In this document: positions 1,218-62,917 of the stretch, piece after piece
Layout of the letters: every line of letters begins with the position of its first letter
Numbering within the stretch: the stretch's first letter is position 1
Assembly (NCBI GenBank): GCA_949130485.1
Contig: OX422183.1
Location: 22,555,202-22,619,201 of the forward strand
Reading direction: 5' to 3'
Source of the DNA: Agelas oroides
Taxonomy: Eukaryota; Porifera; Demospongiae; Agelasida; Agelasidae
Length of the DNA stretch: 64,000 bases
The notes under the pieces: generated by a model
Database searches by the model: none
What the model saw: the letters and a program-made list of their open reading frames with translations, nothing else
Told to the model about the DNA's origin: nothing
Made by a program: the position numbers and the translations under genes

Positions 1218-1459
1218 TCCACTTTCTAGCAGTCTGCAATGTATACTTCAAGAATATACGTAGTAGAGTTGGAGGCCACTACCAAGACATCATGAAAACA
1301 CTGGTTTTATGGTGTAGATCCAGAAATAGAATAGCTAGCTACATTGTAGTGTATAGTGCAAGTTCATTAGCCTGTAGACAGAATTTGTATTGTGAATACA
1401 TTTATGAGTCATTTTGTCACCACATGCAATAACAGTGATCTTACTGTTGTTCTGTCTAG

Positions 1460-9548: not shown

Positions 9549-9903
9549 AGTGTGTCTAGATGCAATGGAAGGCTCCTTTGTTCTTAACTTGATCATATGC
9601 TAGTTGGTGCCACTTACCACGTCAAACTCTCCGGGGAAAATCAGCTTGCAGTGGAGTACACTTCTGTCTCCATGGCACTTGTAACTTTCATTGTCATCCT
9701 TGCTTACCACATCTTCCAGCAGTTGAGGCACACCAAGCTGTGGAAGAAGGTGCCTAAACTGAACATGAAGCTGACTGAACACCAAGCAAGCAGTGAACAA
9801 TCTGAAAACTCCAATAGATGATCTCACAGAATCTGTGAACCTTGATCAGCTTCGTGAACCTTGGCTTGAAGACTTGCTACAGCCCACCCACAGTGTTGTC
9901 TGA
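9549..9903 (+). pseudogene. Duplicated 3' end of a receptor copy
   Basis: Immediately after the tail of copy 1 the sequence jumps back to LDAMEGSFVLNL and repeats the last membrane segments and tail, ending at the stop near 9901–9903. The tail part is shifted out of the membrane-part frame after about 9775. It is a second 3' end placed in tandem, best explained by unequal crossing-over between array members. Confidence 0.85.
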
Positions 9904-12464: not shown

Positions 12465-12573
12465 ACAGCATGGTTTCGAGTGCAATTTGGGATTAATAGC
12501 ACGAGTGAATGGCTGTTAATTGCACGAGGCGAATATGGGAGTAAATGTATTGACACTAAATAAGTATATGATT
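12465..12573. mobile_element. Short insertion in receptor copy 2
   Basis: About 110 bases unrelated to the repeat domain (starting TAACAGCATGGTTTCGAG) separate two stretches of Pmp-like repeats. A TAA stands at both borders and might be a 3-bp target duplication. I see no clear terminal inverted repeats, so the class is unknown. Confidence 0.5.
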
Positions 12574-12638
12574 ACAGTAATAACTCAGCAGGAGTGAGTA
12601 GTGGAGCAATTTCTGCAGCATTCAAAGTTGTACTTACC

Positions 12639-12899
12639 TTCAATGGAGTCAACAACTTTATCAACAACTCAGCAGAACATTGTGATGGTGGTGCAATAAG
12701 AGCAGTGAGTAATGTTGTACTTACCTTCAATGGAGTCAACAACTTTATCAACAACTCAGCAGAACATTGTGATGGTGGTGCAATAAGAGCAGTGAGTAAT
12801 GTTGTACTTACCTTCAATGGAGTCAACAACTTTATCAACAACTCAGCAGAACATTGTGATGGTGGTGCAATAAGAGCAGTGAGTAATGTTGTACTTACC
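12639..12899 (+). repeat. Three exact 87-bp coding repeats
   Basis: A 29-codon unit (TTCAATGGAGTCAACAAC to ACTTACC) is present three times in a row without difference. It encodes FNGVNNFINNSA plus HCDGGAIRAVSNVVLT. Lack of divergence points to very recent amplification or gene conversion. Confidence 0.93.
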
Positions 12900-15598
12900 T
12901 TCAACGAAATCACCATCAACTTCATTTGCAACTCAGCATACAGTTATGGTGGTGCAATCTTCACAGCAAACAATATTTCATTGGGTATCACTGGAACTAG
13001 CAGCTTCAGCAGCAACTCTGCAATGCTAGGTGGAGCCATCTCTGTATACCGTAACAGCACACTGACATTCAATGGAAGTATTAGCTTCATTAACAATGGA
13101 AATCATGTGGATAAATTTAACATTGACAATGGAAATAGCTATGGAGGTGCACTGTATCTGTTTATTAGTTCAACTTTGCCCAACACAACTGTGCGTTGGG
13201 AGAGTAATCATGCAATCTTAGGAGGAGCCATCAATGTTGAAGATGTTAATGCCTTGATTTACTGCAATCAGATTATCAAATACATAACAAGAGAAGAATG
13301 TTTCATTCAACTCCCTGGCCAGAATCTGTCTAGTGGTCTTGACGTTCAACTTGTTTTCAAGAACAATTCTGCTGATGATGCAGGAAGTGTGTTATATGGT
13401 GGCACAATAGATAACTGCAATCTTACTGGTCTGAACACATATAACTCCGGTAAGGTATTTGACATGTTATTCCACAACAATGACACAAATTACAGAACAA
13501 TTTCGAAGATTTCGTCTGACCCATTTCACATATGCCTATGTAAAAACAACCTTCCAGATTGTGGTGAAACAAGGTATGGTCCTATTACTGCTTATCCAGG
13601 TGAAACATTTCAAGTTCCCGTGGTTGCAGTTGGACAAAGAAATGGAACAGTTTCTAGCACAGTGAGGGGCACAGTGAAAACCGATAGTATAACAGACTCC
13701 AAATCAGTTAACCTTTTAGATTATCAATACCTCCAACAAACACACAACGCTTGTACCAAACTCAACTACACTGTATTTTCACTGTCTTGGAAAGTTCAAA
13801 TACAGTTGCATCCAGAAGGTAGTCCATGTTTAAAAAATATTCAAGGATCGATTTTTTTGGTGGAATTAAACTTAAATCAGACTATCCACCTGGATTTGAA
13901 ATGTCTGATTCAGCAAGATCATGCATCTGTGAGCCAAGACTTGTACAATATACAAACCAATGCAATATAACCAATGGATTAGGGCAAATAACACGTGGGT
14001 CAAGCCAACACTTTTGGGTTGGGTATAACATTTCATCTCATGAACTAATTCTCCATTCACACTGCCCTTTTGACTACTGTGTTAATAATGCAAAGGTCTT
14101 TCCTGTCAACAATACCGACATTCAATGTGCACACAACAGGTCAGGGCTCTTGTGTGGACATCGTAAGGAGGGTTATAGTCTGGTACTAGGCACTAATCGA
14201 TGCAGAAAGTGCACAAACTTCCATCTTGTTTTGCTCATCCCTTTGACTTTGGTATTGAAACATGTTTCTACGATGGACTGAATGCTTATGGCAAAACATG
14301 GATGCAGTTTGTGTTCCCTGCATATCTTTGGCTCCTAGTAGGACTCATGATTCTTGTTAGCCATTTCTCACAAAGGTTTGCAAATCTGCTTGGCAGTAAC
14401 CCAGTTTCTGTCTTGGCAACACTCATCCTCCTCTCATATGCAAAGATCCTCCGCACATTGATCACTGCTGTTTATGTCTCCTACCTTGAATATCCAGCTA
14501 ATTATAGCAGAATGGTGTGGCTGTATGATGCAAACATTGACTATCTCAGTGGTGAACACATTCCACTCTTTCTAGTGGCAGTACTTGTCTTCCTCTTCCT
14601 CTTTCTTCCTTACACTCTCTTGCTTCTCTTTGGTCAGTGGCTGCAGGCTATGTCACACCTGAGGCTTTTCTCATGGGTTAACAGTACCAGGCTGAAAGCT
14701 TTCATGGATTCGTATCATGCTCCCTACAAAGCAAAACATCGTTACTGGTCTGGACTGCTACGTGTGCTTCGCTTTGTTCTTCTTCTTGTGTTTGCTTTGA
14801 ATCCTCAGCAAGACCCCAATATTAACCTCCTAGCAATTCTACTAGGAGCTGGGATTCTTCAACTGTGGGCCTGGGTCAGTGGTGGGGTCTACAAAAACTG
14901 GTGTCTAGATGCACTGGAAGGCTCCTTTGTTCTCAACTTGATCATGCTAGTTGGTGCCACTTACTATGTCAAATTCTCAGAAGGAAGTCAGCTTGCAGTT
15001 GGGTACACTTCAGCTTCCATAGCATTTGTTACATTCATTGGCATCCTTGCCTACCACATCTTCCAGCAGTTGAGGCATACCAAGCTGTGGAAGAAGGTGC
15101 CTAAACTGAACCTGGAGTTGAACACACCAAAACCCAAGCAAGCAGTGAATAACCTAAACAATCCTATAAACGATCCCACCGAATCTGTAAACCTTGATCA
15201 GCTTCGTGAACCTTGGCTTGAAGACCTCCTACAGCCCACCCATAGCAGTGTTTGAGTTGTTTTTATACACCCTTGTATTTGAATTCCTTGTGTGTGGACT
15301 AAGCTAACCTTTGAATCAGATGTTAATTTTTGTGGCCAGTTTTCACTGCAGGTCCCTTGTAACTTGTTATGTTTCATTTATGATTTTAGGAGTGAGTAAA
15401 ATTTAACATTGCTACATGTCAACTTCATGGTTATCTGAATGAAAACTATCATAGGCATACACTAAACCCCAAGTGTGTAAATTTTGACCCCAGGAAGCAA
15501 GTAATTTGGTGCACACACACACCATTATTACACCTGAAATTGCACCAATTTGTACATTTGCTTGATCCTGCCATCTTTGACCATTAGATGAACTCGTG

Positions 15599-17935: not shown

Positions 17936-18234
17936 TGAGTGTGTATCAAGTGATAATGTGGACCACTGCACAGGTAGGTTATGTGATTATGTTTGATTTA
18001 CCTGCACAAGTGCAATACACAGCAGCAACATCCAATAATATCATTTAGCGTCTGCTGCACATATGTAGGTGAGGGGGGGCCTCCTGTACACACACATTCT
18101 GGACCTCCAGTATAACTTACTTAAACCACTGTGACATTGCTACTGCCTTTTTGAAATGTGTACTGTATAAATACGGTAATCTGATATCTTATGGGATCAC
18201 AATTATCTATAAAATAAACTACTTTTTTCTGCAG
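17936..18234 (+). other. 5' noncoding exon end and intron of receptor copy 3
   Basis: GTGTATCAAGTGATAATGTG and CACTGCACAG|GTAGGTTATG mark the donor at 17973/17974. The intron ends TTTTTTCTGCAG at 18234 and the coding ATG is at 18244. It is homologous to the 5' structures of copies 2 and 5. Confidence 0.68.
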
Positions 18235-19204
18235 TCATTTCACATGATGGCTCACTCCACCTTTACAGCATCCATTGTTCTTGTAACAGCACTGCTCATT
18301 AACAATCTCGCCAACTGCTACCCTGAGAATGTGTACTGTGTCACACCCACAGCCACCTCGTGCTCATCCTGCCCTCACAATTCAATTCACTGTGCCACAC
18401 TCTCTGAGTATGCACAAGTAGCTGAACCGTATTTTACCTCCAACACCACTATGGTGTTCTTGCCAGGTGACCACGTTCTTGATAGGACTATCACAGTTGC
18501 CAATGTAGCAAGGCTGACCATCCGTGGACAGTTTTCCTCAGACAATATGGCAACAGTTGTTCGCAATGGGTCAGTTAGGCCAGGCCTGAGTTTCACAAAT
18601 ATGGTGGACTTTAACATCTATTCTTTAGCTTTTACCTCTCACAACAGGTTCTGGAGTTATGGTAGTCATCCAGCTAGTGGCTCTGCCCTGATTTTGCAAT
18701 CGACACAAAATGCTAAACTAGTTAACTGTTCCTTCCATGACAACCTTGGTACTGCACTTACAACCAACATTACTCTGGAAGACAACAGTGAGTTTACACA
18801 TAACCAATGTGGATGTGAGTCCTTCAGGTGTAAATTAGGATGTGGTATCAATGCTCTCAACAGCAACCTGAAATTCACTGGAAACACTTCTTTCCATGAA
18901 AATATTGAGCATGGCGCAATTTGGGGATCAGCAAGTTCACTAGACTTTACTGGAACCACCAACTTCATTAGCAACTCAGCATTGCATGGTGGTGCAATCA
19001 GTGCAGAAACCAATTCATTGCTGAGTTTCAATGGCACCAGTGATTTTAGTCATAATTTAGCAGAATTTGGTAGAGGTGGTGCAATTTACACAGATGGTAG
19101 TGCTGTACTTACTTTCACTGGAACTAGCAACTTCACCAACAACTCAGCATCCTCTGGTGGTGCAGTCTATGGACGAAACAACACCTTACTGAGATTCATT
19201 GGAA

Positions 19205-19505
19205 CTATTTAACAAAATGCTACATAGAATTTGGAACCTTCCGTACTGCAGCCATAGAGGGCTGACACACAGGATAGCTTCAATGCAGAGTATATATAAC
19301 CTAGTGTCTCTCAGGAGTGCAAAGCTGCTACAAGCTGCAAAGTTGTGCCCTTCTGTATTAGTGCAGAGGGCTTTTTCTGTTGCTACATCTTTTCCCTTTT
19401 TAGGTGTTAATTGTTGTTGTTTTTTTTTGGTTTCAGGCATGTATTGTAACTCAGATAATGCTCTGGCTGGTCTAATCAGGGCGATTAGGAATGAGTTCAG
19501 GCCAT
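19205..19505 (+). mobile_element. LINE 3' coding fragment (inverted piece)
   Basis: This encodes a run typical of the C-terminus of CR1/jockey-like LINE proteins: FNKMLHRIWNLPYCSHRGL, MQSIYNLVSLRSAKLL. It reads plus, whereas the reverse transcriptase piece to the right reads minus. I take them to be parts of one insertion later split by inversion. Confidence 0.65.
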
Positions 19506-24742: not shown

Positions 24743-25720
24743 TCAACAATATTGATACCTACACAGGATAAAGTACACAATAGTGGTGATAATGGCCAGA
24801 TAAGTGGGTACCAAAAAAGCAGGAAAGGGATGAGAAACTAATATGCAACAAATAGTGGCTTTATGCAGGGGCGGCAGAGCAGGTGAGGTGTGTGTGGGGG
24901 GGAAAAGAGAGGGGGTCATTGCCCCCCCTCCCAAAGTACACAATATGGTGACCTTGCCCTCCAAAGATGCTGTGTAATTGCTAAATGAAAGTAAATCAAA
25001 TACTTATTATACAAACATTGAAACTACGCAGGTCAAGCTTCACTTGCTGTATAATCAACTTCAAATATCCTGTGCAAGGGAAGAAAGTAGCAAATTATAG
25101 GTTTGGTTACTAGCTACATATGCATTGCTATCCTTTCCATACTCATTCAAGGAATGCAGCGCATGAATATATTTACTAGTGTTACAGAAGTATTGGCTCC
25201 CACTGAATCCTTCACCAGTAGTAGTTTCATAGAATTAACATAATCAAGAATTGCTAAAATTGACTGCCTAGTTTGGCCTATTTATGCTGCATGCCTGGGA
25301 CATGTTATGAAGCACTCTGACTTGAAAACACGACATTGTTTGTGTAAAGCAAAATGGTCTTCCCAAATGCTCTACTTATACTGAACCACCTCTCTGGTAA
25401 CAGAGCAGGGGATAGAAGGTATATAGATACAGTTTGATTCACAGCTAGGCTGAGTCTATTTGTTGCACCTTCTCTACATGTGAGTACCAAAGCATTGATC
25501 ATCTGATATACTTCTTGCTGCAGTGAACTGAAGTATCAGCAGCCATTTTGTATATACTATTAGACTCCATTAGAGGCTAACCAAAACATTTCTCCTTCTG
25601 TTGGGGAACACAAATTGTTAAGCCAGCCTAATGCATGAATTTAGTTTGGTTTGCAGGTGGTCTTCTGTAAATCATGAGACATCACATAAAGTGTAGTGTA
25701 CAAACCCCTTATTTTCTGCA
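24743..25720. other. Intergenic upstream of receptor copy 4
   Basis: No gene seen. A G-run/C-run hairpin lies near 24893–24932. The conserved noncoding exon found upstream of copies 2, 3 and 5 is not recognisable here. Only the acceptor (TTATTTTCTGCAG, ending 25721) is kept. Confidence 0.5.
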
Positions 25721-25730
25721 GCCACTTCAC

Positions 25731-28700
25731 ATGATGGCTCACTCCACACCATTCATTGTTCTTGTGGCAGCACTGCTCATTAACACCCCCTCCTACTGCT
25801 CTGCTGAGAATGTGTACTGTGTCACACCCACTGCTACCTCATGCTCATCATGCCCTCACAATTCAACCCACTGTGCCACACTCTCCAAGTATGCACAAGA
25901 AGCTGAAATGTATTTTACTTCCAACACCACTATGGTGTTCTTGTCAGGTAACCATGTTCTTGATAGGAATATCACAGTTGCCAATGTAGCCAGGCTGACC
26001 ATGCATGGAGAGTCTTCCTCAGGCAACATAGCAACAATTGTCCGCAATGGGTCAGTTGGCTTCAGCTTCACAAATATGGTGGACTTCAACATTTATTCTT
26101 TAGCATTTACCTCTCACAACAGGTCCTGGAGTTATGTTAGTCAGCCAGCTAGTAATTCTGCCCTGCTGTTGCAATCGACACAAAATGTGAAACTAGTTAA
26201 CTGTTTCTTTCATGACAACCTTGGCAATGGACTTACAGTACATAACACCAGCATTACTTTGGAAGAGAACAAGTTCACACATAACCAATGTGGATGTGAG
26301 TTATTCAGTGACAATTGCAAATTAGGGTGTGGTATCACTGCTCTCAACAGCAACCTGACATTTATTGGGAACACTACCTTCCATGAAAATAATGCTTCTT
26401 ACTATGATAGTACTGGAGCAATCTGGGCATCAGCAAGCTCACTAGACTTTAATGGAACAAACAGCTTCATTGACAACTCAGCAGAATATGGTAGTGGTGG
26501 TGCAATCCATGCAGAAACCAGCACATCATTAAGTTTTAATGGTACTAGCACTTTCAGTAATAACACTGCAGAATGGTACGGTGGTGCAATCTATGCAGAA
26601 AGTTACTCATCGTTAAGATTCCTTGGTATTAGTACTTTTAGTAGCAACACAGCAGGTTATGATGGTGGGGTAATTAATGTATATGACATCACTGTACTTA
26701 TCTTCAATGGAACTAGCAACTTCATCAACAACTCAGCAAACGGTGATGGTGGTGCAGTTAATGCATACGACGGTGTTGTACTTACCTTAACTGGCTCTAG
26801 CAGCTTCAGCAGCAACTCTGCAAAGCAAGGTGGAGCCATCACTGCGTATTATAACAGCACACTGTTGTTTGATGGAAGCATTAGCTTTGTTAACAATACA
26901 GGAGATAGTCATGGAGGTGCATTGTACCTGTACATTAGTTCAGCTTTCTCTATCTTGCCCCACACAACCGTGCATTGGGAGAACAATCATGCAAAATTAG
27001 GTGGAGCCATTTTTGTCTATGATGCTAACCCCCGAATTTACTGTAACAGATATGTATCAAAAGAAGAATGCTTCTTCCAGCTTCCTGGCCACAATCTGTC
27101 TCATGGTATAAAATCTATTGAGATGCAACTATTTTTCAAGAACAACTCTGCTGACGCTGCGGGAAGTGTGTTATATGGTGGTGCGATAGATAACTGCAAA
27201 CTCAATGGCCTGGAATCAAATAGCTCAGGTGAAGTGTTTGATATGTTAGCCCAATATGAAGCTGACAACACAACCTCAAGTATCTCCTCTGACCCATTTC
27301 ACATATGTCCATGTGAAAACAATAGTCCAAACTGCAGTAAGTCAATGAAGACATTATTAGTATATCCAGGTGAAACATATCAAGTTTCAGTGGTCACCGT
27401 TGGACAGAGAAATGGAACAGTTCCTGCAAATGTAACAAGTGTGGATAGATACATACTTCCATGTTCTCAAATTGTCCAACCAACAAATAGAGCATGCACC
27501 ACACTCACTTACACTGTGGATCCAAATCAGAAAGTGTCTTTAGAGTTGCACACAGAAAGCACATGTTCAGCACTCGTTCTTAAGTTGAATGGAACTCAGA
27601 GTTGCACAGGTAGTGCAAACAATTCATTGTCATGCATCTGTGATCAAGCACATAGAAAATATGGAATCGACCACTGCAGTCTTACAAATGGATCAGTAGA
27701 AATAACACGTGACTCTGAAGATACGTTCTGGGTTGGGTATAATCTATCTTACAGACCTGGTCTAACTGTGCATCCCTACTGCCCCTTTGACTACTGTATC
27801 AATCATAGAGTAAACATTACTCTTAACAATACTGACTCGCAGTGTGCACACAACAGAACAGGTATCTTGTGTGGTAGTTGTATAAACAAAGTTACAGTCT
27901 GGAACTGGGCACTTTTCAGTGCACAAAGTGCACAAATTACTATATTGCCTTACTTGTCCCTTTTGCACTGATGGGAGTAGCACTTGTCTTCTTGCTCCTT
28001 GTCTGCAAACTGACAGTGGCAACGGGAACAATCAGTGGCCTAGTGTTCTATGCCAATATTGTTGGAGAAATCCGCACCATCTTTCTACCAGTGAAATCTA
28101 CTGATGTATTATCAATCTTTATTGCATGGCTAAACCTTGACTTTGGCATTGAAACGTGTTTTTATGATGGAATGGACGCTTACAGCAAAACATGGCTGCA
28201 GTTTGTATTCCCTATATATCTTTGGGTACTGGTAGGACTAATGATTATAATTAGCCATCTCTCACCAAAGTTTGCAGATGTGTTAGGCAGCAACCCAGTT
28301 TCTGCCTTGGCAACACTCATCCTTCTCTCATATGCAAAGATCCTCCGCACATTGATTACTGCAGTTTCTTTCACCTACCTTGAATATCCAAAAATTGTAT
28401 GGTTGTATGATGCCAATATTGACTATTTTAGTAAAGAACGCATTCCACTCCTACTAGTCCCACTACTGGTCTTCTTCTTCCTCTTTCTTCCTTACACCCT
28501 CTTGCTTCTGTTTGGTCAGTGGCTGCAAGCCATATCACACCTGAGGCTTTTCTCATGGGTCAACAGACTAAAACCATTTATGGATTCATACCATGCTCCC
28601 TACAAAGCAAAACATCGCTACTGGCCTGGACTACTGCTTGTACTTCGCTTTGTTCTTCTTCTAGTGTTTGCTTTCAATCCTCAGCAAGACCCCAGTATTA

Positions 28701-29185
28701 ACCTCCTTACAATTCTACTAGGAGCTGGGATTCTTCAACTGTGGGCCTGGGTCAGTGGTGGGGTCTACAAGAACTGGTGTCTTGATGCACTGGAAGGCTC
28801 CTTTGTTCTCAACTTGATCATCCTAGTTGGTGCCACTTACCACGTCAAACTCACCTATGTAAAAGACCATGTCAAATTTGTAGAAAACGTGCTTACAGTC
28901 GGCTACACTTCTATCTCCATAGTACTTAGAACATTCATTGGCATCCTTGCCTACCACATCTTCCAGCAATTGAGGCATACCAAGCTGTGGAAGAAGGTGC
29001 CTAAACTGAACATGAAGCTGATGTTCAAGAAACTGAACACAAAACTGAACAAGAAACTGAACACAAAGCAAGCAGAAGAGAATATAAACAATCTTACAAA
29101 TGATACCACTGAGTCTGGAAGGTTTGATCAGCTTCGTGAACCACTGCTTGATGACCCACCACAGCCCACCCACAGTGTTGTATGA
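25731..29185 (+). CDS. Pmp-like receptor copy 4, near-complete with one frame break
   Basis: Start ATGATG at 25731, just after a TTTTCTGCAG acceptor (an upstream in-frame ATG at 25674 lies inside the intron). The first frame (25731–27971) encodes a signal peptide, the N-terminal domain, about ten GGAI/FxxN repeats and the Cys-rich stalk, then leaves the family frame at about 27890. The second frame (from about 27893 to 29185) encodes all membrane segments and the tail ending EPLLDDPPQPTHSVV. A single small indel in the stalk therefore separates the ectodomain from the membrane part. It may be a recent pseudogene, a sequencing error, or a source of secreted ectodomain. The tail carries an expanded MFKKLNTKLNKKLNTK motif not present in the other copies. 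Confidence 0.78.
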
Positions 29186-30912: not shown

Positions 30913-33900
30913 ATGGCTCAGTCCACATCATTCACTGTTCTTGTGGCAGCACTGCTCATTAACACTCTCTCCTACTGCTCTGCTGACAGTGTGTACTGTG
31001 TCACACCCACTGTCGCCTCATGCTCATCCTGTCCTCACAATAACCACTGTGCCACACTCTCTGAGTATGCACAAGAAGCTGAAATGTATTTCACCTCCAA
31101 CACCACTATGGTGTTCTTGCCTGGTGACCATACTCTTGATAGAAGTGTCACAGTTGTCAATGTAGCCAGGCTGACCATGTGGGCTTCAAACAATATGGCA
31201 ACAATTGTTCGCAATGGGTCAGTTGGCTTCAGCTTCACAAATATGGTGGACTTCAACATTTATTTTTTAGCTTTTACCTCTTACAACAAGTCCTGGAGTT
31301 ATGGTAGTCATCCAGCTAGTAACTCTGCCCTGTTCTTGCAATCGATACAAAATGCTGAACTAGTTAACTGTTCTTTCCACGATAACATTGGCACTGCACT
31401 TGCAGTAAATAACACCAGTGTCACTCTGGTAGAGAACAAATTCATACATAACCAATGTGCATGCAGGTCATTCAGTGAGATGCATGAATTGGGATGTGGT
31501 ATTACTACTTTCAACAGCTACCTAACATTCACTGGAAACACTTCCTTCCTTAATATTACCCAAACAGCTTTTCACTCTTATGCCTATTGTGCTGGAGCAA
31601 TCTGGGCATCAGCAAGCTCACTACACTTCACCGGAACCAACAATTTCATTGACAACTCAGCAAATGGCATCAACAGTGTTGGTGCAATTTATGCACAAGC
31701 AAACACATTATTGAGTTTTAATGGCACTAGTAATTTTACTCATAACTCAGCAGAAGTGGGTGGTGTAATTGGCACAGCTGACAATGTTGCATTTACTTTC
31801 AATGGAACCAACGTCTTCTTCAACAACTCAGCAAGTGATAGTGGTGGTGCAATCTTTGCAGGTAGCAATATATTGTTGAATTTCATTGGTACTAATGAGT
31901 TTACTCATAACTCAGCAGAACACAAAGGTGGTGCAATCTTTGCAATAACCAACATTTCACTGACCTTCATTGGTACTAATAATTTCACTCATAACTCAGC
32001 TGGTATTGAAGGTGGTGCAATTGACACATTGGACAATGGTGTCCTTACCTTCAATGGAACCAACTACTTCATCAATAACTCAGCAAATAGTGGTGGTGCA
32101 ATCTTTGCAGTAACCAACACATCACTGATTTTCATTGGTACTAATAATTTTACTCATAACTCAGCAGGTATTGGTGGTGGTGCTGTTGTCACAGCTGAAA
32201 ATGTTGTAGTTACATTCAATGGAACCAACAACTTCACTAGCAACTCAGCAAGTGATAGTGGTGGTGCAATCTTTGCACTTAGCAACACATTGTTGAATTT
32301 CATTGGTACTAATGAGTTTAGTCATAATTCAGCAGAACAAGATGGTGGTGCAATTTCCACAGATAATGCAGTACTTACCTTCAATGGAACCAACTACTTC
32401 ATCAATAACTCAGCAGACGTTGGTGGTGCAATTTACACATTGGACAATGCAGTACTTACCTTCAATGGAACCAACTACTTCATCAATAACTCAGCAGAAT
32501 TTGGTGGTGCAATCTTTGCAGTAACCGACACATCACTGATTTTCATTGGTACTAATAATTTTACTCATAACTCAGCAGGTAATAAAGGTGGTGCTGTTGT
32601 CACAGCTAACAATAGTGCTCTTACCTTCAATGGAACCAACAACTTCATTAATAACTCAGCAAATAGTGGTGGTGCAATCTATGCAGTAACCAACACATCA
32701 CTGAATTTCATTGGTACTAATAATTTTACTCATAACTCAGCAGGTATTGGTGGTGCTGTTGTCACAGCTGGCAATGTTATAGTTACTTTCAATGGAACCA
32801 ACAACTTCACTAGCAACTCAGCAAGTGATAGTGGTGGTGCAATCTTAGCAGTTAGTAACACATTGTTGAATTTCATTGGTACTAATGAGTTTAGTCGGAA
32901 TTCAGCAGAACAAGATGGTGGTGCAATTGCCACATTGGACAATAGTGTTCTTACCTTCAATGGAACTAACTACCTCATCAATAACTCAGCAGACGTTGGT
33001 GGTGCAATTTACACATTGGACAATGGTGTTCTTACCTTCAGTGGAACCAACTACTTCATCAATAACTCAGCAGACTTTGGTGGTGCAATTGACACATTGG
33101 ACAATAGTGTTCTTACTTTCAATGGAACCAACTACTTCATCAATAACTCAGCAGACTTTGGTGGTGCAATTTACACATTGGACAATGGTGTTCTTACCTT
33201 CAATGGAACCAACTACTTCATCAATAACTCAGCAGACTTTGGTGGTGCAATTTACACATTGGACAATGCAGTACTTACCTTCAATGGAACCAACTACTTC
33301 ATCAATAACTCAGCAGACTTTGGTGGTGCAATTGACACATTGGACAATGGTGTCCTTACCTTCAATGGAACCAACTACTTCATCAATAACTCAGCAAATA
33401 GTGGTGGTGCAATCTTTGCAGTAACCGACACATCACTGATTTTCATTGGTACTAATAATTTTACTCATAACTCAGCAGGTATTGAAGGTGGTGCTGTTGT
33501 TACAGCCTACAATGGTGTTCTTATCTTCAATGGAACCAACAACTTCATCAATAACACAGCAAACAATGGTGGTGCAATCTTTGCAGTATTCCATGCATCA
33601 TCATGTTTCACTGGTACTAGCAGCTTCAGTAACAACTCTGCAATACAAGGTGGAGCCATCTCTGCAAATTCTAACATCACACTGACATTCAATGGAAATA
33701 TTAGCTTTGTAAACAATGGACACAATATAAGAGATAGCCATGGAGGTGCAATGCATCTGGCTATTGATTCAACTTTCTTTGTTTTGCCCCACACAATTAT
33801 GTGTTGGGAGAACAATCATGCAAACTTAGGAGGAGCCATCTATGTCCTTACTGCTATCCCCTTCATTCAATGCAATATGACTCAGATTGCCACATTTATA

Positions 33901-35979
33901 ACAAGAGAAAAATGTTTTTTTCAACTTCCCGGCCAGAATCTGTCTAGTGGCCTTGATGTCCAACTTGTTTTCAAGAACAACTCTGCTGATGCTGCAGGAA
34001 GTGTGTTATACGGGGGTGCAATAGATAACTGTGGCCTGGACGCAGATTACTCTGGCAAAGTGTTTGACAAGTTAGTACACTATGAAGCTGATAACACAGC
34101 TTCAAGCATTTCGTCTGACCCCTTTCGCATATGCCTGTGTAAGTTAAACGACCATCCAAATTGTAGCCAGTCATTGAAGACACTGTCAGCCTATCCAGGT
34201 GAAACATTTCAAGTTTCAGTGGTCACTGTTGGTCAGAGAAATGGAATAGTTCCTGCAGCAGTCAGAAGTAATGTGGACAAAGGCAGGCTTGCAAGTTCTC
34301 AATATATTCAACAGACAACAAAAATGTGCACCACACTCAACTACACTGTGTTTTCACAGGAGGATGTGTCTCTAGAGTTGTATCCTGAAGGTCCATGCTC
34401 AACATTCAGTGCAAAACTGTTTCTTAAGTTGAGTGTAAGTCAGAGCTGTCCACCTGGATTTAGTCTAGAAAACAGCTCATTGTCATGTGCCTGTGATCAA
34501 GTACTTCAAAAGTATACCAACAACTGCAATATAACAAATGGACAAGGGCAAATAGCACGTGAGTCTGATGACACATTTTGGGTTGGCTATGATCAATATC
34601 ACAGACTAAGTGTCCATCCATACTGCCCTTTTGATAACTGTGTCTCTCATGCTGTGAACTTTTCTCTCAACAATACAGACATGCAGTGTGCATACAACAA
34701 GTCAGGCCTTTTGTGTGGAGCTTGCAAGAATGAATATAGTTTGGTACTGGGCACTTCCCGTTGCAAACAGTGCACCAACTCTCATCTCTACCTGCTCATC
34801 CCTTTTGCACTGATGGGAATTGCACTGGTCTTCTTGCTCCTTGTCTGCAAATTGACAGTGGCAACAGGAACACTCAGTGGCCTAGTGTTCTATGCCAATA
34901 TTGTTGGAGTCAATCGTACTATCTTTCTACCAGTGGAATCATTATCAGTCTTTATTGCATGGCTAAACCTTGACTTTGGTATTGAAACATGTTTCTATAA
35001 CGGAATGGATGCTTATAGCAAAACATGGCTGCAGTTTGTATTCCCTGTATATATTTGGGTGCTAGTAGGACTCATGATACTTGTTAGCCACTTCTCACAA
35101 AGGTTTGCATACCTGCTAGGCAACAACCCAGTCTCTGTCTTGGCAACACTCATCCTCCTCTCGTATGCAAAGATCCTTCGCACATTGATTACTACAGTCT
35201 ATTTCACCCACCTGGAATATCCAACTTACAATAGGAGTGTGTGGTTCTATGATGCAAACATTGACTATATCGTTGGCAAGCACATCCCACTCTTTCTAGT
35301 GGCTGTGCTTGTTTTCTTCTTTCTCTTTCTTCCTTACACTCTGTTGCTTCTGTTTGGTCAGTGGTTGCAGGCCATATCACACCTGAGGCTCTTCTCATGG
35401 GTCAACAGTGCAAGGCTGAAACCATTCATGGATGCATACCATGCTCCCTACAAAGCAAAACATCGCTACTGGCCTGGACTGCTGCTTGTGCTTCGCTTTG
35501 TTCTTCTTCTAGTGTTTGCTCTGAATCCTCAGCAAGACCCAAATATTAATCTGTTAGCAATTCTAGTGGGAGCTGGGATTCTTCAACTGTGGGCCTGGGT
35601 CAGTGGTGGGGTCTACAAAAACTGGTGTCTAGATGCACTGGAAGGCTCATTTACCCTGAACTTGACCATACTAGGTGCTACCACTTACTATGTCAACCAC
35701 TCAGGAGGAAATCAGCTTGCAGTTGGGTACACCTCTGTCATCATAGCACTTGCAACATTCATTGGCATCCTTGCCTATCACATCTTCCAGCAATTGAGGC
35801 ACACCAAGCTGTGGAAGCTACCTAAATTGAACCTGGAGCTCAAAAAAAAGCTGAACACCAAGCAAGCAGTGAATAACCTGGACAATCCTCTAAACAATCC
35901 TACAGAATCTGTGAACCTTGATCAACTTCGTGAACCTTGGCTTGATGACCTGCTACAGCCCACCCACAGTAGCTTCTGA
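30913..35979 (+). CDS. Pmp-like repeat multi-pass membrane protein (intact copy 5)
   Basis: A 1,688-codon open frame in a single coding exon. Signal peptide (about 1–25); N-terminal domain with paired Cys (about 26–240); about 27 repeats of near 27 residues (about 250–940) with GGA[IV] and FxxN motifs as in chlamydial Pmp proteins, predicted to form a beta-helix; a domain with QLPGQNLSSG and LYGGAIDNC (to about 1050); a Cys-rich stalk (CPPGFSLENSSLSCACDQ, LLCGACKNEYSLVLGTSRC; about 1170–1290); about 8–9 hydrophobic segments (1290–1630) with DFGIETCFYNGMDAYSKTW and AWVSGGVYKNWCLDALEGSF; and a charged tail ending REPWLDDLLQPTHSSF. Nearly every repeat has two N-X-S/T sequons (NGT, NNS), which suggests a heavily glycosylated surface protein. 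Function is unknown; recognition or adhesion is an inference. This is the only fully open member of the array. Confidence 0.9.
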   Translation: MAQSTSFTVLVAALLINTLSYCSADSVYCVTPTVASCSSCPHNNHCATLSEYAQEAEMYFTSNTTMVFLPGDHTLDRSVTVVNVARLTMWASNNMATIVRNGSVGFSFTNMVDFNIYFLAFTSYNKSWSYGSHPASNSALFLQSIQNAELVNCSFHDNIGTALAVNNTSVTLVENKFIHNQCACRSFSEMHELGCGITTFNSYLTFTGNTSFLNITQTAFHSYAYCAGAIWASASSLHFTGTNNFIDNSANGINSVGAIYAQANTLLSFNGTSNFTHNSAEVGGVIGTADNVAFTFNGTNVFFNNSASDSGGAIFAGSNILLNFIGTNEFTHNSAEHKGGAIFAITNISLTFIGTNNFTHNSAGIEGGAIDTLDNGVLTFNGTNYFINNSANSGGAIFAVTNTSLIFIGTNNFTHNSAGIGGGAVVTAENVVVTFNGTNNFTSNSASDSGGAIFALSNTLLNFIGTNEFSHNSAEQDGGAISTDNAVLTFNGTNYFINNSADVGGAIYTLDNAVLTFNGTNYFINNSAEFGGAIFAVTDTSLIFIGTNNFTHNSAGNKGGAVVTANNSALTFNGTNNFINNSANSGGAIYAVTNTSLNFIGTNNFTHNSAGIGGAVVTAGNVIVTFNGTNNFTSNSASDSGGAILAVSNTLLNFIGTNEFSRNSAEQDGGAIATLDNSVLTFNGTNYLINNSADVGGAIYTLDNGVLTFSGTNYFINNSADFGGAIDTLDNSVLTFNGTNYFINNSADFGGAIYTLDNGVLTFNGTNYFINNSADFGGAIYTLDNAVLTFNGTNYFINNSADFGGAIDTLDNGVLTFNGTNYFINNSANSGGAIFAVTDTSLIFIGTNNFTHNSAGIEGGAVVTAYNGVLIFNGTNNFINNTANNGGAIFAVFHASSCFTGTSSFSNNSAIQGGAISANSNITLTFNGNISFVNNGHNIRDSHGGAMHLAIDSTFFVLPHTIMCWENNHANLGGAIYVLTAIPFIQCNMTQIATFITREKCFFQLPGQNLSSGLDVQLVFKNNSADAAGSVLYGGAIDNCGLDADYSGKVFDKLVHYEADNTASSISSDPFRICLCKLNDHPNCSQSLKTLSAYPGETFQVSVVTVGQRNGIVPAAVRSNVDKGRLASSQYIQQTTKMCTTLNYTVFSQEDVSLELYPEGPCSTFSAKLFLKLSVSQSCPPGFSLENSSLSCACDQVLQKYTNNCNITNGQGQIARESDDTFWVGYDQYHRLSVHPYCPFDNCVSHAVNFSLNNTDMQCAYNKSGLLCGACKNEYSLVLGTSRCKQCTNSHLYLLIPFALMGIALVFLLLVCKLTVATGTLSGLVFYANIVGVNRTIFLPVESLSVFIAWLNLDFGIETCFYNGMDAYSKTWLQFVFPVYIWVLVGLMILVSHFSQRFAYLLGNNPVSVLATLILLSYAKILRTLITTVYFTHLEYPTYNRSVWFYDANIDYIVGKHIPLFLVAVLVFFFLFLPYTLLLLFGQWLQAISHLRLFSWVNSARLKPFMDAYHAPYKAKHRYWPGLLLVLRFVLLLVFALNPQQDPNINLLAILVGAGILQLWAWVSGGVYKNWCLDALEGSFTLNLTILGATTYYVNHSGGNQLAVGYTSVIIALATFIGILAYHIFQQLRHTKLWKLPKLNLELKKKLNTKQAVNNLDNPLNNPTESVNLDQLREPWLDDLLQPTHSSF
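32917..33402 (+). repeat. Six consecutive 81-bp coding repeats in copy 5
   Basis: Six 27-codon units, each of the form GGAIxTLDNxVLTFNGTNYF plus INNSADF, differ at only a few positions. A larger block is also duplicated: about 32100–32350 and 32680–32935 carry the same order of repeat variants. The repeat domain has grown by both unit and block duplication. Confidence 0.92.
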
Positions 35980-38492: not shown

Positions 38493-39462
38493 TTAATTTA
38501 GCAGTTGTATACATACACCATAGGGCCGAATGAAGTCGTCACGAGACTGCAACCAATATTCCCCAACTCTTGTCGTCTGTGCATCAACAATTTTCAAATT
38601 GGTAGGGCAAACTCGATTCTGAAACACAAGCTTGTACCAGGCGGAAAGCTTAGCATACTTTGCTGCAACTTGGATGGAAGGTGTGGAGTATATCCCACTG
38701 CCATACAGAAATCGTTTTCCTTGACCCAATCTGTACCCATCCTGGGCAATACTTCCACTTGCACTCTCTCCGGTGCCATGGTAAGACACCGGCCACTCGC
38801 CTTCAGAGGAATGAAATCTTAGGCCTCGCTCACCTAGCCACTTGTCATTTTCAAATCTGCCCAGGACTTTGATAGCGTACCTATTCCACCCGTAGGGTCG
38901 TTGATACTCATAACCTCCTCGGTAGTACTTCTTACCATCATCAACTTGCTTCGTAAAGTCATAGTCAAACTTGGGATCCATGAGTGAATCATCCACATAG
39001 TAAGTGGGCATTCCTCCTCCACGTAACCTCAGCACCAAGTGAATTGTAGCATCTTTTTGAATGTTATAATCGGAGAGGGTACGACTGTCTTCTAGCTGCA
39101 TGCCAGCAAAAATTAGTCTTTGCTGGTCTGGGGGAATTCCTTCCGGCATTTCTTGTATTTTCTCTTTCACATCTTCCACAGTGTCACCTGGTGAAACTCC
39201 AACAGTCAAAGTCTTCCCTAGCTGTCTGGGTCTTGATGTAGACATCAAAAGACGGTACGGAGCTGGTGTCTCTATCTCCAAATTTTCCGTACAAATGACT
39301 AACTTTAAAAAGCCGATCTATATCGAGTGGCTCGAAGCTTGCATTGTCTTTCTTCTCTTCCTTTTCCTTTCGGTACTCGTCATAGGTCAGGACAGTCAAT
39401 CCTAGTGAGGAGGTAAAGGCAGACGCTAACAGGTCACTCACGCCAACTGCAGCTGCCGCCAT
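38493..39462 (-). pseudogene. Ubiquitin–ADP-ribosyltransferase fusion, copy A
   Basis: Same architecture as the open copy at 45746–46717: extension starting [20 protein letters not shown], ubiquitin, PARP-like domain. Next to copy B it has a 4-bp insertion near 39215–39230, at the first strand of the ubiquitin, that breaks the frame. It also lacks 12 bp in frame after the AAKYA motif (B has NVFHHKGK there, A has KLSA). The rest (38493–39281) is open and starts with an internal ATG, so a shorter product is possible. Its ubiquitin ends LRLRGG; the residue at the K48 position is Met and K63 is kept. The H (YHGT), Y (GSGIYST) and E (GEYW) positions of the transferase are all present. Confidence 0.75.
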
Positions 39463-44985: not shown

Positions 44986-45329
44986 TGACGGTTGTTGCAT
45001 ATTACACAATGTACAACAGTATGGGTAGGCTGGAACAGTTTTCCACCCAAGGCTGGAGAGAGGAAGCTCTACAAAGGACCATGCAGTTATCCTAATAACT
45101 ACCTGTACTCGATGTATCCTGACAATATTGTATTCCGCAGCACTAATAATTATTATGTCTAACTCGCACGAATGTATGGGAGTCAATGGGAAAACGTTGG
45201 AGCTGTGCGTAAAACCGTTTCAGTACTACAACTCACACGAGAATCCGTATCAGGTACTACAATTCACGCGCACTGCATCTAAAATTATTATCACCATAGT
45301 ACCAAACTATACAAGAAAAAAAAAAAATA

Positions 45330-45514: not shown

Positions 45515-45745
45515 CTTGGGTTGCCTTATGCAATTACTCTTCAATACCAAAGTAAAACTTTCATAACCACTGTTTCTTCAGCTTGTCTGCAACCAGGGTA
45601 ACCACTCTGTGGTTAAAACAACCAACTTGTTTTTGCAGTGATATATATATATATAAACAATACGATTATAATAACACATTATATATGCAATGTGTTCTGG
45701 TATGTTTAATTGTATCCATACCAATCAAGTTTGTGATACAGTAAC

Positions 45746-46717
45746 TTAATTTAGCAGTTGTATACATATACCATAGGGCCGAATGAAGTCGTCACGAGGC
45801 TGCAACCAATATTCCCCAACTCCTGTCGTCTGTGCATCAAGAATTTTCAAATTGCTAGGGCAAACTCGATTCTGAAACACAAGCTTGTACCACTTTCCTT
45901 TGTGGTGGAAAACATTGGCATACTTTGCTGCAACCTGGATGGATGGTGTAGAGTAAATCCCGCTGCCATAGAGAAACCGTTTTCCTTTACTCAATCTGTA
46001 CCCATCCTGGGCAATACTTCCACTTGCACTCACTCCAGTGCCATGGTAAGATACCGGCCACTCACCTTCAGAGGAATGAAATCTTAGGCCTCGCTCACCT
46101 AGCCACTTGTCATTTTCAAATCGGCCCAGGACTTTGATAGCGTACCTCTTCCACCCGTAGGGTCGTTGATACTCGTAACCTCCTCGGTAGTACTTCTCAC
46201 CATCATCAACTTGGTTTGTAAAGTCATAGTCAAACTTGGGATCCATGAGTGAATCATCCACATAGTAATTGAGCATTCCGCCTCCGCGTAACCTCAGCAC
46301 CAAGTGCATTGTACTCCCCCTTTGAATGTTGTAATCTGCGAGAGTTCGACCATCCTCCAGCTGTTTGCCAGCAAATATCAGTCTTTGCTGGTCTAGGGGA
46401 ATTCCTTCAATGTCTTGTATTTTCTCTTTCACTTCTTCCACTTTATCACTTCCTGCAACTTCAACAGTGAAAGTCTTTCCTGTCAGGGTCTTGATGTATA
46501 CGCCATTAGTAGACGGTAGAGTGTCTCTCTCTCCAAATTCTCCGTACAAATGACTAACTTTAAAAAGCCGATCAATATCGAGTGGCTCGAAGCTTGCATT
46601 GTCTTTCTTCTTTTTCTTTTCCTTTTGGTACTGGTCATAGGTCAGGACAGTCAATCCTAGTGAGGAGGTAAAGGCAGACGCTAACAGGTCACTCACGCCA
46701 ACTGCAGCTGCCGCCAT
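45746..46717 (-). CDS. Ubiquitin–ADP-ribosyltransferase fusion, copy B (open)
   Basis: 323 codons, no intron. Residues 1–70: extension ([20 protein letters not shown], Lys-rich stretch 31–39). Residues 71–146: ubiquitin fold with [20 protein letters not shown] and intact LRLRGG at 141–146; the L8, I44 and V70 equivalents and K48 are kept, K63 is Arg and K33 is Ile. Residues 147–323: a domain with SYHGT (His225), [14 protein letters not shown] (Tyr255) and [19 protein letters not shown] (Glu302). These match the spacing and context of the H-Y-E triad of PARP-type ADP-ribosyltransferases. Deubiquitinases normally cut after such a GG, so the enzyme part might be released from its ubiquitin, as in ubiquitin–ribosomal protein fusions; that is inference. 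Activity and substrates are unknown. The 5' leader is short and the ATG is the first in frame. Confidence 0.87.
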
Positions 46718-46773
46718 TGTTTAGTTACCAGAGTGTGGAAAAGGTCCAATCGCAGTGAATCGCCGAAAGTCTA

Positions 46774-58211: not shown

Positions 58212-58489
58212 TTTCCCCCTAGCTACAAAGCTGCCAGAAATGCATACCTTTTCTGATATTCAATACTGACTAGTCTTATTGCTATACTGATACCGTGCTT
58301 ACTTGTGCTCTTCTCCCTTGATGTGCTGCATACTCTCTGAATGTATGCTTGTAGGCAGAAATTCGGTTAAGTTAAATCTGGTAGGGAGAGGGTTAAAATC
58401 TAAATTTGGGGTAAACCCGTAATTTTTTTCTCATGAGCAAGTCTGTACATAACGAGATTCGGTGGGGTCTGGGCGGATCACGTGATACC

Positions 58490-59400
58490 CATGCAGAATA
58501 CAGTTTGCACTTCAGCTCCTCTGTCTAGATGGCAATGCCAGTCATTCACAGCAGAGAGTATAGCCCCTGTTGTACATCTACCAGTCAAAAATCCCCACTG
58601 TTGGTCAGAAATCGATAAGAAATTGCACAGCTTCTCATATATGTGTTGCTCAAGTACCTTACTGATGATTGACAACAGAGAGATGGGTCGGTAGTTCCTG
58701 GGATTGGACTTATGTCCCTGTTTGTGGATTGGGACAATCAGGGAAGTCTTCCAGCTATCTGGGACTGTACCATTGGAAATCAACATGTTGCAAAGGCGTA
58801 TTACCAGTGGTGCAATAGCTAATGCTGTGTTCTTGAGTATTAGAGCTGAAATACTGCCTGGACCAGTAGACTTAGTAGTGTCCAAGTTGGAGAGCAGCCA
58901 TCTTCCAAGTATAGTAGAGCGACATGGCACCCTTCAAGAGGGACAGGAAGCACATCATCTTCAGACAAGGGTGTGACAGAAATAAAGTTCATTTCAAAGG
59001 TCGTACTTAGAAGATCTGCTTTAGCCTGAGGTGTTGCTGTTTGTAGTGTAGGGATACTAGAGCTATTCTTGCCAAAGTGCAATAAAACCTTCCAAAAGTG
59101 TTTACTACCTGGCTGGAGTCGCTGAAAGAACTTTCTTCTAGATGTTCTGAGGAGAAGTCACCTTATTCCTGGCATGTCTGTATTTCAGCAGGTAGTGTGG
59201 AAAAGTTTAGGATTTTCTGTAAAACATGTCCCTTTTCCTCATGAGTTGAATAATTGATTTTGACAGCCATGGGAGCTCAGTGTAGTTAAGGACTGGGTCC
59301 AGTAAATTTTCAGTACTCAGATCATTGATTTTCCATGCAGATTTCTTGGACAGTAATGTATTTATACCAGTCACTGGTGCACTGAATGAAATAATCATTC
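58490..59400 (-). mobile_element. LINE fragment (CR1/jockey-like), N-terminal RT half
   Basis: The minus strand shows LPWLSKSIIQLMRKRDMFYR at the 5' side, HFGKNSSSIPTLQTAT in the linker, then KSTGPGSISALILKNTA, WKTSLIVPIHKQGHKSNPRN and YRPISLLSIISKVLEQHIYE of the reverse transcriptase fingers. The frame shifts at least once. The catalytic YxDD half is missing, and the element ends where the large inverted repeat begins. It is a dead, truncated copy. Confidence 0.85.
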
Positions 59401-60754: not shown

Positions 60755-62917
60755 ATGAGTCAGCTACCTACCATCATTTCGGAGCCCGAGTCAGCGGACG
60801 CTGACACTCAGGACAGCAAGGACGGAGGAGAGAAGGAAGCCGAAACGTATGATGTTTTTGAGTATCTGACTAAAGGATGCTACCCACAGGGTACATCAAA
60901 AGCTGACAAGAGCGTTCTTAGAAGAATGTTATTGTGTTGCTCAACTTGCTGTGTGTGACAGGTTGTGATGATTTCGGATACAAAATCATGTAGCTGCTTT
61001 CCTCTACAAAATGATTCTCCGTCATGGTTGTCCTGAAGAGATAGTTTCTGACCAAGGTCGTGAGTTTTGTAATCAGCTCATTGATCTCCTAGAACAGCTC
61101 ACTGGTTTCAAACACAAAATTACCAGTGCCTACCACCCACAGTCAAATGGCTTAGATGAGCGCTTAAATCAGACGCTGAAATCGAAGCTTCAACAGCTCG
61201 TTAATGAGCACATGGATGATTGGGATGAGCTTATCGACAACATTTTGTTTGCCTACCGATCTAGCCGACAAGACTCCACCAAGTGCACTCCTTTCCTCCT
61301 CATGTATGGTAGGGAGGCTCGTTTACCTATTCAGCTGACTCAAACAACATCAGAGCTTGACGAGGATGATTTTAAAGCAAAGGTAAAACGCATGGCAGAG
61401 CTCCGAGCGAAATTGCATTCAAATGCTCTAGCAAACATTGAAAAAGCCCAGGAGCGTCAAAAGAAACACTATGATGCAAAACACAACACAAACACGAAAC
61501 TGAAAGTCGGGGACAAGGTGCTTGTGAAAGACATGAAGAATGAGGGGAGGAAAGGTGGCAAGCTGGACCAGCTGTTTCCTGGGGGACCGTACACAATCGT
61601 TGAAGACTTGGGCAAAGGTTGCTACCGGTTGAAGGATGGGAAGGGAGATCTGAAGAAGACAGCAATCAACTGCCATAGACTGAAGCTTTGGCTAGACCCA
61701 GACGGGGTAGACTGAAGCCACAAAAGGTATGTATGCATGTATGTATGTATGTACGTACACGTGTTTGTCCAGATTAGTGTATTGACATGTATTGTACGTC
61801 TTTTTTGGATGCAGGACACAACTGACGACACCAAGCCTTCTGTTAATAACAGCAGAAAGCCAGGAAAGAGAACTGGTGGGTCAGGAAATCCACTTCCTCC
61901 AAAAAAAAAAGAGCAAAGGTAGGTTTTGATGCATGTATACATGTTGTGTTGGTAATGCATGTTAGTTGCCAAAGAAGTATTCTCTCTGACTTGTACGACC
62001 TGCAACTTTTCACACACAGACCTCTGAGCAACCTTGGGTGGCCGAGTTGAACCTCACAATGAGAGATAAAGCTGTCCTAGAAAGTCCTGATGGCATGCTG
62101 ACAGACAAGCACATGGATGCAGCGAGTAAACTTCTATCTGCTCAGTTCCCACACATGCAAGGCCTTCAGTCATCTTTGAGGTACCAAACTGCTGGTGGAC
62201 TCACTCCTATTACCTTTTCTGGTGGCTTTGTGCCTGAAGGTTTGTCACAAACTGTAATTGAGTACATATAACTAGTCAATCGTACACGATAATTATGCTC
62301 TAAATATTACTGTCTAAGTCCACATAGCTACTGTTCACATACATGGCTAACTATACACCAGTTTGACTTCTTCAGCTTTGCAGATACTGTTTGTGAGTGA
62401 ACGACATCACTGGATTCTGTCCAGCTTCCATGAGAATCACGTTAGCATATACGACAGTCTCTCCTCACTTCCCCTCACCACATCTGTGGAGCAGCAACTA
62501 CTCCAGGTTTATGGGGCAACAATGCCACATGGAAGCAATGGCCTCCTCATATCATCACTGCCAGTCCAGCAACAGCATGGGGAATGTGATTGTGGCCTGT
62601 TCGTGATCGCAACTGCACTTCACATCGCTGCTGGAAACAACATTGAGGAGGTTTCATTCGACCAGACAAAGATGCAAAACCACCTTGTGATGTGTTTCCA
62701 GATGAAAGTCCTCTCTCCTTTTCCACAGACAAAAAAGAAAGTCAAGCGAAGTATGCTTGCAAACATTCTCATTCCTGTGTACTGCCACTGTGGTAGACCA
62801 GGCTCTCTAGATGAGATGATTCAATGTGATGGTTGTGATACATGGTTTCATTTTCAGTGTGCGCACATTAAAAGAGCCACAGATAGTGATTGGTTTTGTT
62901 CCACTTGTGCTAAGTAG
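60755..62917 (+). mobile_element. Ginger-like DNA transposon remnant: integrase, Ulp1-like protease, PHD
   Basis: The parts, in order: an acidic N-terminal piece ending TYDVFEYLTKGCYPQGTSKA (60755–60958); a gypsy-type integrase region (61011–61715) with VSDQGREF and HPQSNGLDERLNQ of the DDE core and a C-terminal GPY/F motif (PGGPYTIVEDLGKGCYRLK); a basic linker (about 61815–61920); a short piece (about 62037–62240); and a last piece (about 62376–62917). The last piece has an Ulp1-type cysteine protease core (RHHWI, IYDSL, QQHGECDCGLFVIA) and a C4HC3 PHD finger (YCHCGRPGSLDE … WFCSTC). Ginger elements are known to combine such an integrase with Ulp1 and PHD domains. It looks incomplete; terminal repeats were not found. 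A host gene derived from such an element is the alternative. Confidence 0.72.

What the first reader, a model, noticed from the sequence alone, without database searches (positions are those of the whole stretch)
45746..46717. Ubiquitin fused to a PARP-like ADP-ribosyltransferase with intact H-Y-E triad
Seen: a complete ubiquitin (LRLRGG at 141–146) placed between a 70-residue extension and a 177-residue domain with [12 protein letters not shown] and GEYW at spacings typical of PARP-type transferases. Known: ubiquitin fused to ribosomal proteins is cut after GG by deubiquitinases, and some PARP-family enzymes modify ubiquitin or act with E3 ligases. Inferred: this protein may deliver a transferase as a ubiquitin fusion, or act on its own ubiquitin. 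I recall similar C-terminal domains in other eukaryotes, but not a characterised function.
Basis: partly seen in the sequence, partly recalled or inferred. Interest (0 to 1): 0.78.

Follow-up and report, generated by a model that had tools for sequence, protein, structure and literature searches.

The report
Ubiquitin-fused PARP-like enzyme gene family
A eukaryotic genome carries a small gene family in which a diverged ubiquitin sits in front of a domain resembling the enzymes that attach ADP-ribose to proteins, so two protein-tagging systems meet in one polypeptide whose job has yet to be tested.

Summary
On the minus strand, window 45746-46717 is one frame of 323 codons: a 70-residue extension, a ubiquitin domain (71-146, ending LRLRGG) and a 177-residue domain with H225, Y255 and E302. 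The same order occurs at 8 loci of this 259-Mb genome, the window gene included: 6 intact (one with two GT-AG introns) and 2 frameshifted, one of these in the window. The genome search with the C-terminal domain alone found no copy outside these 8. That domain is, by sequence, a divergent PARP-type ADP-ribosyltransferase; each line of evidence is weak or sub-threshold, but they agree. The fold could not be tested. The ubiquitin part is not ordinary: 57 of 74 residues match human ubiquitin in the window copy, 25 of 74 in the most diverged paralog, which lacks GG. In both tandem pairs it is more diverged, at silent sites too, than the parts beside it. I read it as a mono-ADP-ribosyltransferase with a built-in ubiquitin-like module, cleaved at most in some copies. 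The architecture looks new; its parts are known.

The parts
45746..46717 (-). gene in a single open frame, 323 codons plus stop: N-extension / ubiquitin / PARP-like ART
   Evidence: five of the six intact family members are single open frames
46508..46717 (-). N-terminal extension, residues 1-70, no known domain above threshold
   Evidence: only Pfam match E 0.016, below cut-off; recognisable in the paralogs: 27/62 identical to C2a, 27/62 to C2b, 15/55 to C6a, 21/69 to C6b
46280..46507 (-). ubiquitin domain, residues 71-146, ends LRLRGG
   Evidence: PF00240 E 2.3e-28; 57 of 74 residues equal human ubiquitin; ten-residue blocks from 71 to 140 modelled with mean pLDDT 64-89
45749..46279 (-). PARP-like ADP-ribosyltransferase domain, residues 147-323
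46043..46045 (-). H225 of YHGT (predicted NAD-binding His); H in 6 of 6 family sequences compared
45953..45955 (-). Y255 of GSGIYSTP; Y in 6 of 6
45812..45814 (-). E302 of GEYW; E in 5 of 6, Q in C6b
38493..39462 (-). second copy of the same gene in this window, broken by a frameshift (4-base length difference near codon 80); pieces open at 39184-39462 and 38493-39281
   Evidence: its segmental duplicate at C1:22667115-22668067 is broken at the same place and once more

Best explanation
The gene encodes an intracellular NAD-dependent mono-ADP-ribosyltransferase of the H-Y-[EDQ] (PARP-like) clade that carries a ubiquitin-like module in cis. The module most likely works uncleaved, as a docking part that brings the transferase to ubiquitin-binding partners or substrates. 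In copies that keep LRLRGG, cleavage after Gly146 may additionally occur. The tandem copies diverge mainly in this middle module while the flanking extension and catalytic domain stay alike. Shown: gene, architecture, 8-locus family, conserved H and Y, constraint on the ART domain, the excess of divergence centred on ubiquitin in two tandem pairs. Inferred: activity, mono rather than poly transfer, docking role, location in the cell.
For: Same three-part order at 8 of 8 loci found. PARP is the top relative in Pfam and in the PDB profile search and aligns in a profile-profile comparison, with negative controls. H and Y in 6 of 6 family sequences compared (five intact ones and the frameshifted copy), E in 5 of 6. 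ART under purifying selection: C2a/C2b dN/dS 0.16, p 4.4e-7; window copy/second copy 0.33, p 0.0026. Ubiquitin fold kept while the tail varies: LRLRGG in window copy, second copy and C2a; LKLTGG in C2b; VLVRGG in C6a; no GG in C6b. PF00240 still hits C6b at E 2.2e-11. So the fold is what the family keeps, not the cleavage tail.
Against: No usable structure model of the ART domain. All PARP matches are weak: below Pfam's cut-off where scores were seen, absent from the genome-wide PF00644 list at E 0.001, only E 0.18 for the single sequence in PDB, with a titin chain at E 0.012 close behind PARP10's 0.004; hhalign probability 13.9. The stretch aligned with PARPs covers about residues 222-287 and does not reach E302. 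The 47 residues from Y to E are few compared with PARPs (PARP spacing recalled). C6b has Q in place of E. In C2a the last 12 ubiquitin residues are almost intact (10 of 12) although only 32 of 62 of the rest match, which fits selection for cleavage in that copy. The C2a/C2b island of divergence is wider than ubiquitin (about codons 53-171). No expression or biochemical data.
Confidence: 0.45

Rival explanations
1. Cleavable ubiquitin fusion: deubiquitinases cut after Gly146, releasing the 177-residue transferase with an N-terminal Gly, so that ubiquitin acts as a folding or dosage partner as in ubiquitin-ribosomal protein fusions.
For: LRLRGG followed by G (a cleavable junction by general knowledge) in the window copy, its 98% duplicate, the second copy and C2a. 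In C2a 10 of the last 12 ubiquitin residues are canonical against 32 of 62 of the rest.
Against: Tail altered in C2b and C6a and absent in C6b. The ubiquitin is preceded by an extension kept in the family. The ubiquitin is diverged (57 of 74), unlike the 11 normal polyubiquitin units on C15 of the same genome, which are 97-99% identical to human ubiquitin.
Confidence: 0.28
2. Self-directed or trans ubiquitin ADP-ribosylation: the transferase modifies ubiquitin, first its own fused one, for example at Arg42 or Thr66, the sites used by bacterial SidE and CteC.
For: Only 9 of 67 compared ubiquitin columns equal human ubiquitin in all 6 family sequences, and both Arg42 and Thr66 are among the 9 (1.6% if two columns were drawn at random). 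SidE/CteC/DTX chemistry: PMC11668277 section 5.
Against: Post hoc, and conserved ubiquitin-fold positions are expected among the nine. In 24 diverged ubiquitin units of the same genome that are not fused to this ART, Thr66 is kept in 23 of 24 and Arg42 in 15 of 24, so 6 of 6 is not significant for Arg42 (p 0.14).
Confidence: 0.12
3. Catalytically dead PARP-like pseudoenzyme: the domain binds NAD or ADP-ribose, or only protein, and the ubiquitin module recruits partners.
For: E replaced by Q in one of six family sequences; weak resemblance to PARP. TASOR, called a pseudo-PARP in a title listed, is a precedent.
Against: H, Y, GxG, YS and RPYG invariant in 6 of 6. Q at the third place is within the H-Y-[EDQ] clade definition (PMC9503650 passages).
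Confidence: 0.1
4. Artefact: a chance or assembly-made fusion.
For: The 74-kb repeat of the region could be an unresolved haplotype.
Against: Diverged copies at other places (the C2 pair, C6a, C6b) with the same order, and clean GT-AG introns in C6b.
Confidence: 0.02

Closest known systems
PARP/ARTD catalytic domain (PF00644), nearest PARP10 and PARP16
   Same: YHGT...GxGxY motif alignment; H and Y positions
   Different: Below Pfam's cut-off where scores were seen; short stretch between Y and E; N-terminal part not aligned to PARPs, with its own conserved RGG, RPxGW and EWPVSYHGT blocks
PARPs with ubiquitin-pathway domains (UBCc or UBA on PARP6/8-type; 'ubiquitin-related domains' in two Acanthamoeba clade-5 PARPs), PMC4245714 passages
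   Same: ADP-ribosylation and ubiquitin modules in one chain
   Different: There on clade 5 and 6 PARPs; here ubiquitin directly before a divergent ART, in a family with tandem copies
Ubiquitin-ribosomal protein fusions (eL40, eS31)
   Same: Ubiquitin ending GG followed by another protein (PDB matches of the ubiquitin part)
   Different: Extension before ubiquitin; ubiquitin diverged; tail not kept in all copies
Bacterial ubiquitin ADP-ribosyltransferases SidE and CteC (PMC11668277 section 5)
   Same: Link of ADP-ribosylation and ubiquitin
   Different: There the enzyme acts on host ubiquitin in trans; CteC is called ARTC-type there, and that SidE is of the R-S-E type is recalled; here H-Y-E and ubiquitin fused in cis

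Membership tests
Ubiquitin family (PF00240) | score above curated cut-off | tested here: met
   98.2 bits against 25.4; C2a 90.9, C6a 60.5, C6b 43.8 bits
Ubiquitin proper | C-terminal LRLRGG in all family members | tested here: not met
   altered in C2b and C6a, absent in C6b; present in window copy, second copy and C2a
PARP (PF00644) | score above curated cut-off | tested here: not met
   17.1 bits (whole) and 18.0 bits (domain) against 26.7 for the window protein; 15.1-19.3 for three paralogs; family not in the genome-wide list at E 0.001
PARP (PF00644) | profile-level relationship above background | tested here: met
   PARP10 E 0.004; own PARPs E 0.002 and 0.0031, the former with 0 of 200 shuffles as high, max 25.3 against 26.6. 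Weak: hhalign probability 13.9
H-Y-[EDQ] ART clade | H, Y and E/D/Q at the active site | tested here: met
   H 6/6, Y 6/6, E 5/6 and Q 1/6; third position assigned by motif, not by alignment; clade definition from PMC9503650 passages
H-Y-[EDQ] ART clade | ART fold with the triad together | tested here: inconclusive
   AlphaFold2 pLDDT 30.5 for the domain, below 50 over residues 142-323 of the full protein: no usable model
H-Y-[EDQ] ART clade | NAD-dependent transferase activity | not testable with these tools
   needs protein

The most novel reading that the evidence does not exclude
A eukaryotic enzyme family that ADP-ribosylates ubiquitin carried in its own chain (or uses it as a mimic to grab ubiquitin chains), with the ubiquitin module diverging faster than the catalytic part in tandem copies, as if the target or partner changes while the enzyme stays the same. 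As far as I know it would be the first H-Y-E transferase with a built-in ubiquitin substrate, and possibly an immune or conflict factor.
Probability: 0.1. Interest if true: 0.85.

Novelty: new variant of a known kind. Interest (0 to 1): 0.5.

Why it matters
ADP-ribosylation and ubiquitination cross-talk is known mostly through separate enzymes or pathogen effectors. A eukaryotic gene family that joins a ubiquitin to a PARP-like transferase gives a direct, small (323 aa), testable protein for asking whether ubiquitin serves such an enzyme as tether, substrate or removable cap. The ART domain scores below Pfam's PARP cut-off, so such proteins would escape standard PARP annotation. The ubiquitin-centred divergence in two separate tandem pairs is a second question.

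Tried and rejected
Relatives elsewhere: no relative in viral contigs (3 scans), genome contigs of bacteria and archaea (2 scans), phages or plasmids (tblastn), PHROGs; the contig scans rest on a few short peptide patterns, so they find close relatives only.

Module swap from polyubiquitin: rejected as the source of the divergence. Third-codon-position identity of window-copy against second-copy ubiquitin is 0.67 and of C2a against C2b 0.70. Against 11 polyubiquitin units of C15 it is 0.24-0.43 and against 7 other, diverged units 0.24-0.48 (these 18 were chosen from 37 units), so each pair's ubiquitins are sisters. Homogenised flanks (gene conversion) with an unconverted middle fit better, not proved.

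Locus L030 (a match covering residues 19-148) looks by eye like a plain ubiquitin-like gene. R42/T66 retention is only a lead. Fold search was not used because the models were worthless.

Literature: ten searches (some listings were capped, e.g. 10 of 72 papers and 10 of 51; one search found no paper). None of the listings or passages that I saw reports this fusion; most listed papers were not opened. The Aravind 2015 ART review was not held. Seen: passages of PMC7955679, PMC4245714, PMC3482391 and PMC9503650; outline and section 5 of PMC11668277; all others only as listings with the start of the abstract.

Full report
What is there. The minus strand of window 45746-46717 is a single frame of 323 codons. 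Residues 73-144 match PF00240 ubiquitin at E 2.3e-28. The ubiquitin is full-length but diverged: 57 of 74 compared residues equal human ubiquitin. It sits behind a 70-residue extension, so it has no free N-terminus.

A family, not an oddity. The window lies at C1:22555202-22619201 of a 259,295,671-base assembly in 141 contigs. Searching that genome with the ART domain alone, E up to 1, gave 10 matches, which fall on 8 loci: the window copy; its 98% duplicate about 74 kb away; a second copy in this window at 38493-39462 that is frameshifted; that copy's duplicate, broken at the same place and once more; a tandem pair C2a and C2b on contig 2; and C6a and C6b on contig 6. All 8 carry extension, ubiquitin and ART in this order, so this search found no copy of the ART domain without ubiquitin. 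Five of the six intact copies are single open frames. C6b has three exons joined by GT-AG introns, reads as 341 aa and lacks the terminal GG. The search scores only its best candidates and works exon by exon.

What the C-terminal domain is. Each of the 6 members scanned hits PF00644 PARP at E up to 1 (best 3e-4; the window protein 17-18 bits against a cut-off of 26.7), and 3 of 6 hit DUF3990 weakly (best 0.021). A search of the whole genome with PF00644 at E 0.001 listed 36 places, none of them in this family. A profile of the six finds PARP10 first among 177,635 PDB sequences, E 0.004; a titin chain at 0.012 shows how close to background that is, and the single sequence gives only PARP16 at 0.18. 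Against seven PARP domains from the same genome (A4; 7 of the 8 nearly full-length open ones that I translated, out of the 36 places) hhalign gives E 0.002, probability 13.9, aligning about residues 222-287 with H and Y in register; 0 of 200 column shuffles reach its score of 26.6 (highest 25.3), and the reversed alignment scores 13.4. Against the two-sequence A5 subset the E is 0.0031, probability 10.1. Three reversed sequences hit no Pfam family up to E 10 (letters checked). H, Y and the GxG, YS and RPYG positions are invariant in 6 of 6 sequences compared (five intact copies and the second copy); the E is Q in C6b. PMC9503650 defines an H-Y-[EDQ] clade (passages), so Q does not by itself exclude activity. 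Placing E302 as the third residue rests on its context (E-Y-W before a final stretch with RPYG), which to my eye resembles the E-L-V...IRPRYII end of two of the genome's PARPs; no profile alignment reached it.

What could not be shown. Two AlphaFold2 jobs with window sequences only gave mean pLDDT 30.5 for the ART domain and below 50 for residues 142-323 of the full protein; only the ubiquitin part was modelled (ten-residue blocks of 64-89).

Selection and the ubiquitin island. Between C2a and C2b the ART domain has dN/dS 0.16 (p 4.4e-7 by a Fisher test of rounded site counts, which treats sites as independent); between the window copy and the second copy 0.33 (p 0.0026). Between window copy and duplicate there are too few changes to say (p 0.15-0.17). 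In both tandem pairs the ubiquitin part is about three times or more as diverged at silent sites as the parts beside it: C2a/C2b dS 0.63 against 0.15 and 0.20 (p 1.3e-4); window/second copy 0.45 against 0.04 and 0.15 (p 4.3e-4). Nonsynonymous changes are in excess too (p 4.4e-12 and 8.8e-4). Amino-acid identity is 0.56 against 0.89 and 0.93, and 0.75 against 0.89 and 0.90. High dS argues against positive selection alone and for flanks homogenised by gene conversion with the middle left out. Third-position identity shows that each pair's ubiquitins are sisters and not new imports from polyubiquitin. In C2a/C2b the blastn homology runs almost exactly from start to stop codon, but in the window pair it extends into the 3' flank (45661-46743 and 45027-45154), as in an ordinary tandem duplication. 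The C2a/C2b island runs wider than ubiquitin, about codons 53-171; in the window pair it is closer to the ubiquitin edges, with one well-conserved stretch inside it and a second, shallower dip inside the ART domain. Within ubiquitin dN/dS is 0.32-0.43, so it is still constrained.

How it most likely works. Because the ubiquitin fold persists in every copy, including one with 25 of 74 residues and no GG, while the cleavage tail does not, I take the module to be mainly an integral docking part of a mono-ADP-ribosyltransferase. Cleavage remains likely enough for copies with LRLRGG to be the main rival, and C2a, with 10 of the last 12 residues canonical against 32 of 62 of the rest, is the best case for it. 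Action on ubiquitin itself is the boldest reading: two ubiquitin residues ADP-ribosylated by bacterial effectors, R42 and T66 (PMC11668277 section 5), are among only 9 of 67 columns kept in all six sequences, but 24 diverged ubiquitin units elsewhere in the genome keep T66 in 23 of 24 and R42 in 15 of 24, so this is a lead and no more.

Novelty. PARPs with ubiquitin-pathway domains are known (UBCc, UBA, and ubiquitin-related domains in two amoeba PARPs; PMC4245714 passages). In ten searches of the held library (listed in Tried and rejected) no listing or passage that I saw reports ubiquitin directly in front of a divergent H-Y-E transferase; the library lacks most subscription journals and most listed papers were not opened. 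I rate it a new variant of a known kind.

Noticed in passing
window 38493-39462 (-): Frameshifted second copy of the same ubiquitin-ART gene, 7 kb away; its segmental duplicate shares the break.
   Followed up: yes
window 6453-9587, 11448-15255, 18151-19212, 25674-29185, 30913-35979 (+): By eye a tandem family of long frames; the longest (1688 aa) matches the Chlamydia polymorphic-membrane-protein repeat (PF02415, E 5.1e-36) and is followed by what looks like a multi-pass membrane part. Odd in a eukaryote.
   Followed up: partly
window 1414-2883 (+): Single-frame vanin/biotinidase-like carbon-nitrogen hydrolase (PF00795 and PF19018).
   Followed up: no
L023, L024, L026 (C1:30.50 Mb), L028, L029 (C1:30.58 Mb), L025 (C11): Long arrays of diverged head-to-tail ubiquitin units (open frames up to 1804 aa), many with altered tails such as HPPGG or RLLGG, beside normal polyubiquitin on C15.
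   Followed up: partly
window 62363-62917 (+), 61011-61715 (+), 58478-58930 (-): Likely mobile-element remnants: PHD finger with a Ulp1-protease match, integrase core (below cut-off), reverse transcriptase (below cut-off).
   Followed up: no
G000:C1 22.593-22.676 Mb: About 74-kb duplication holding both ubiquitin-ART copies; real tandem duplication or unresolved haplotype not decided.
   Followed up: partly
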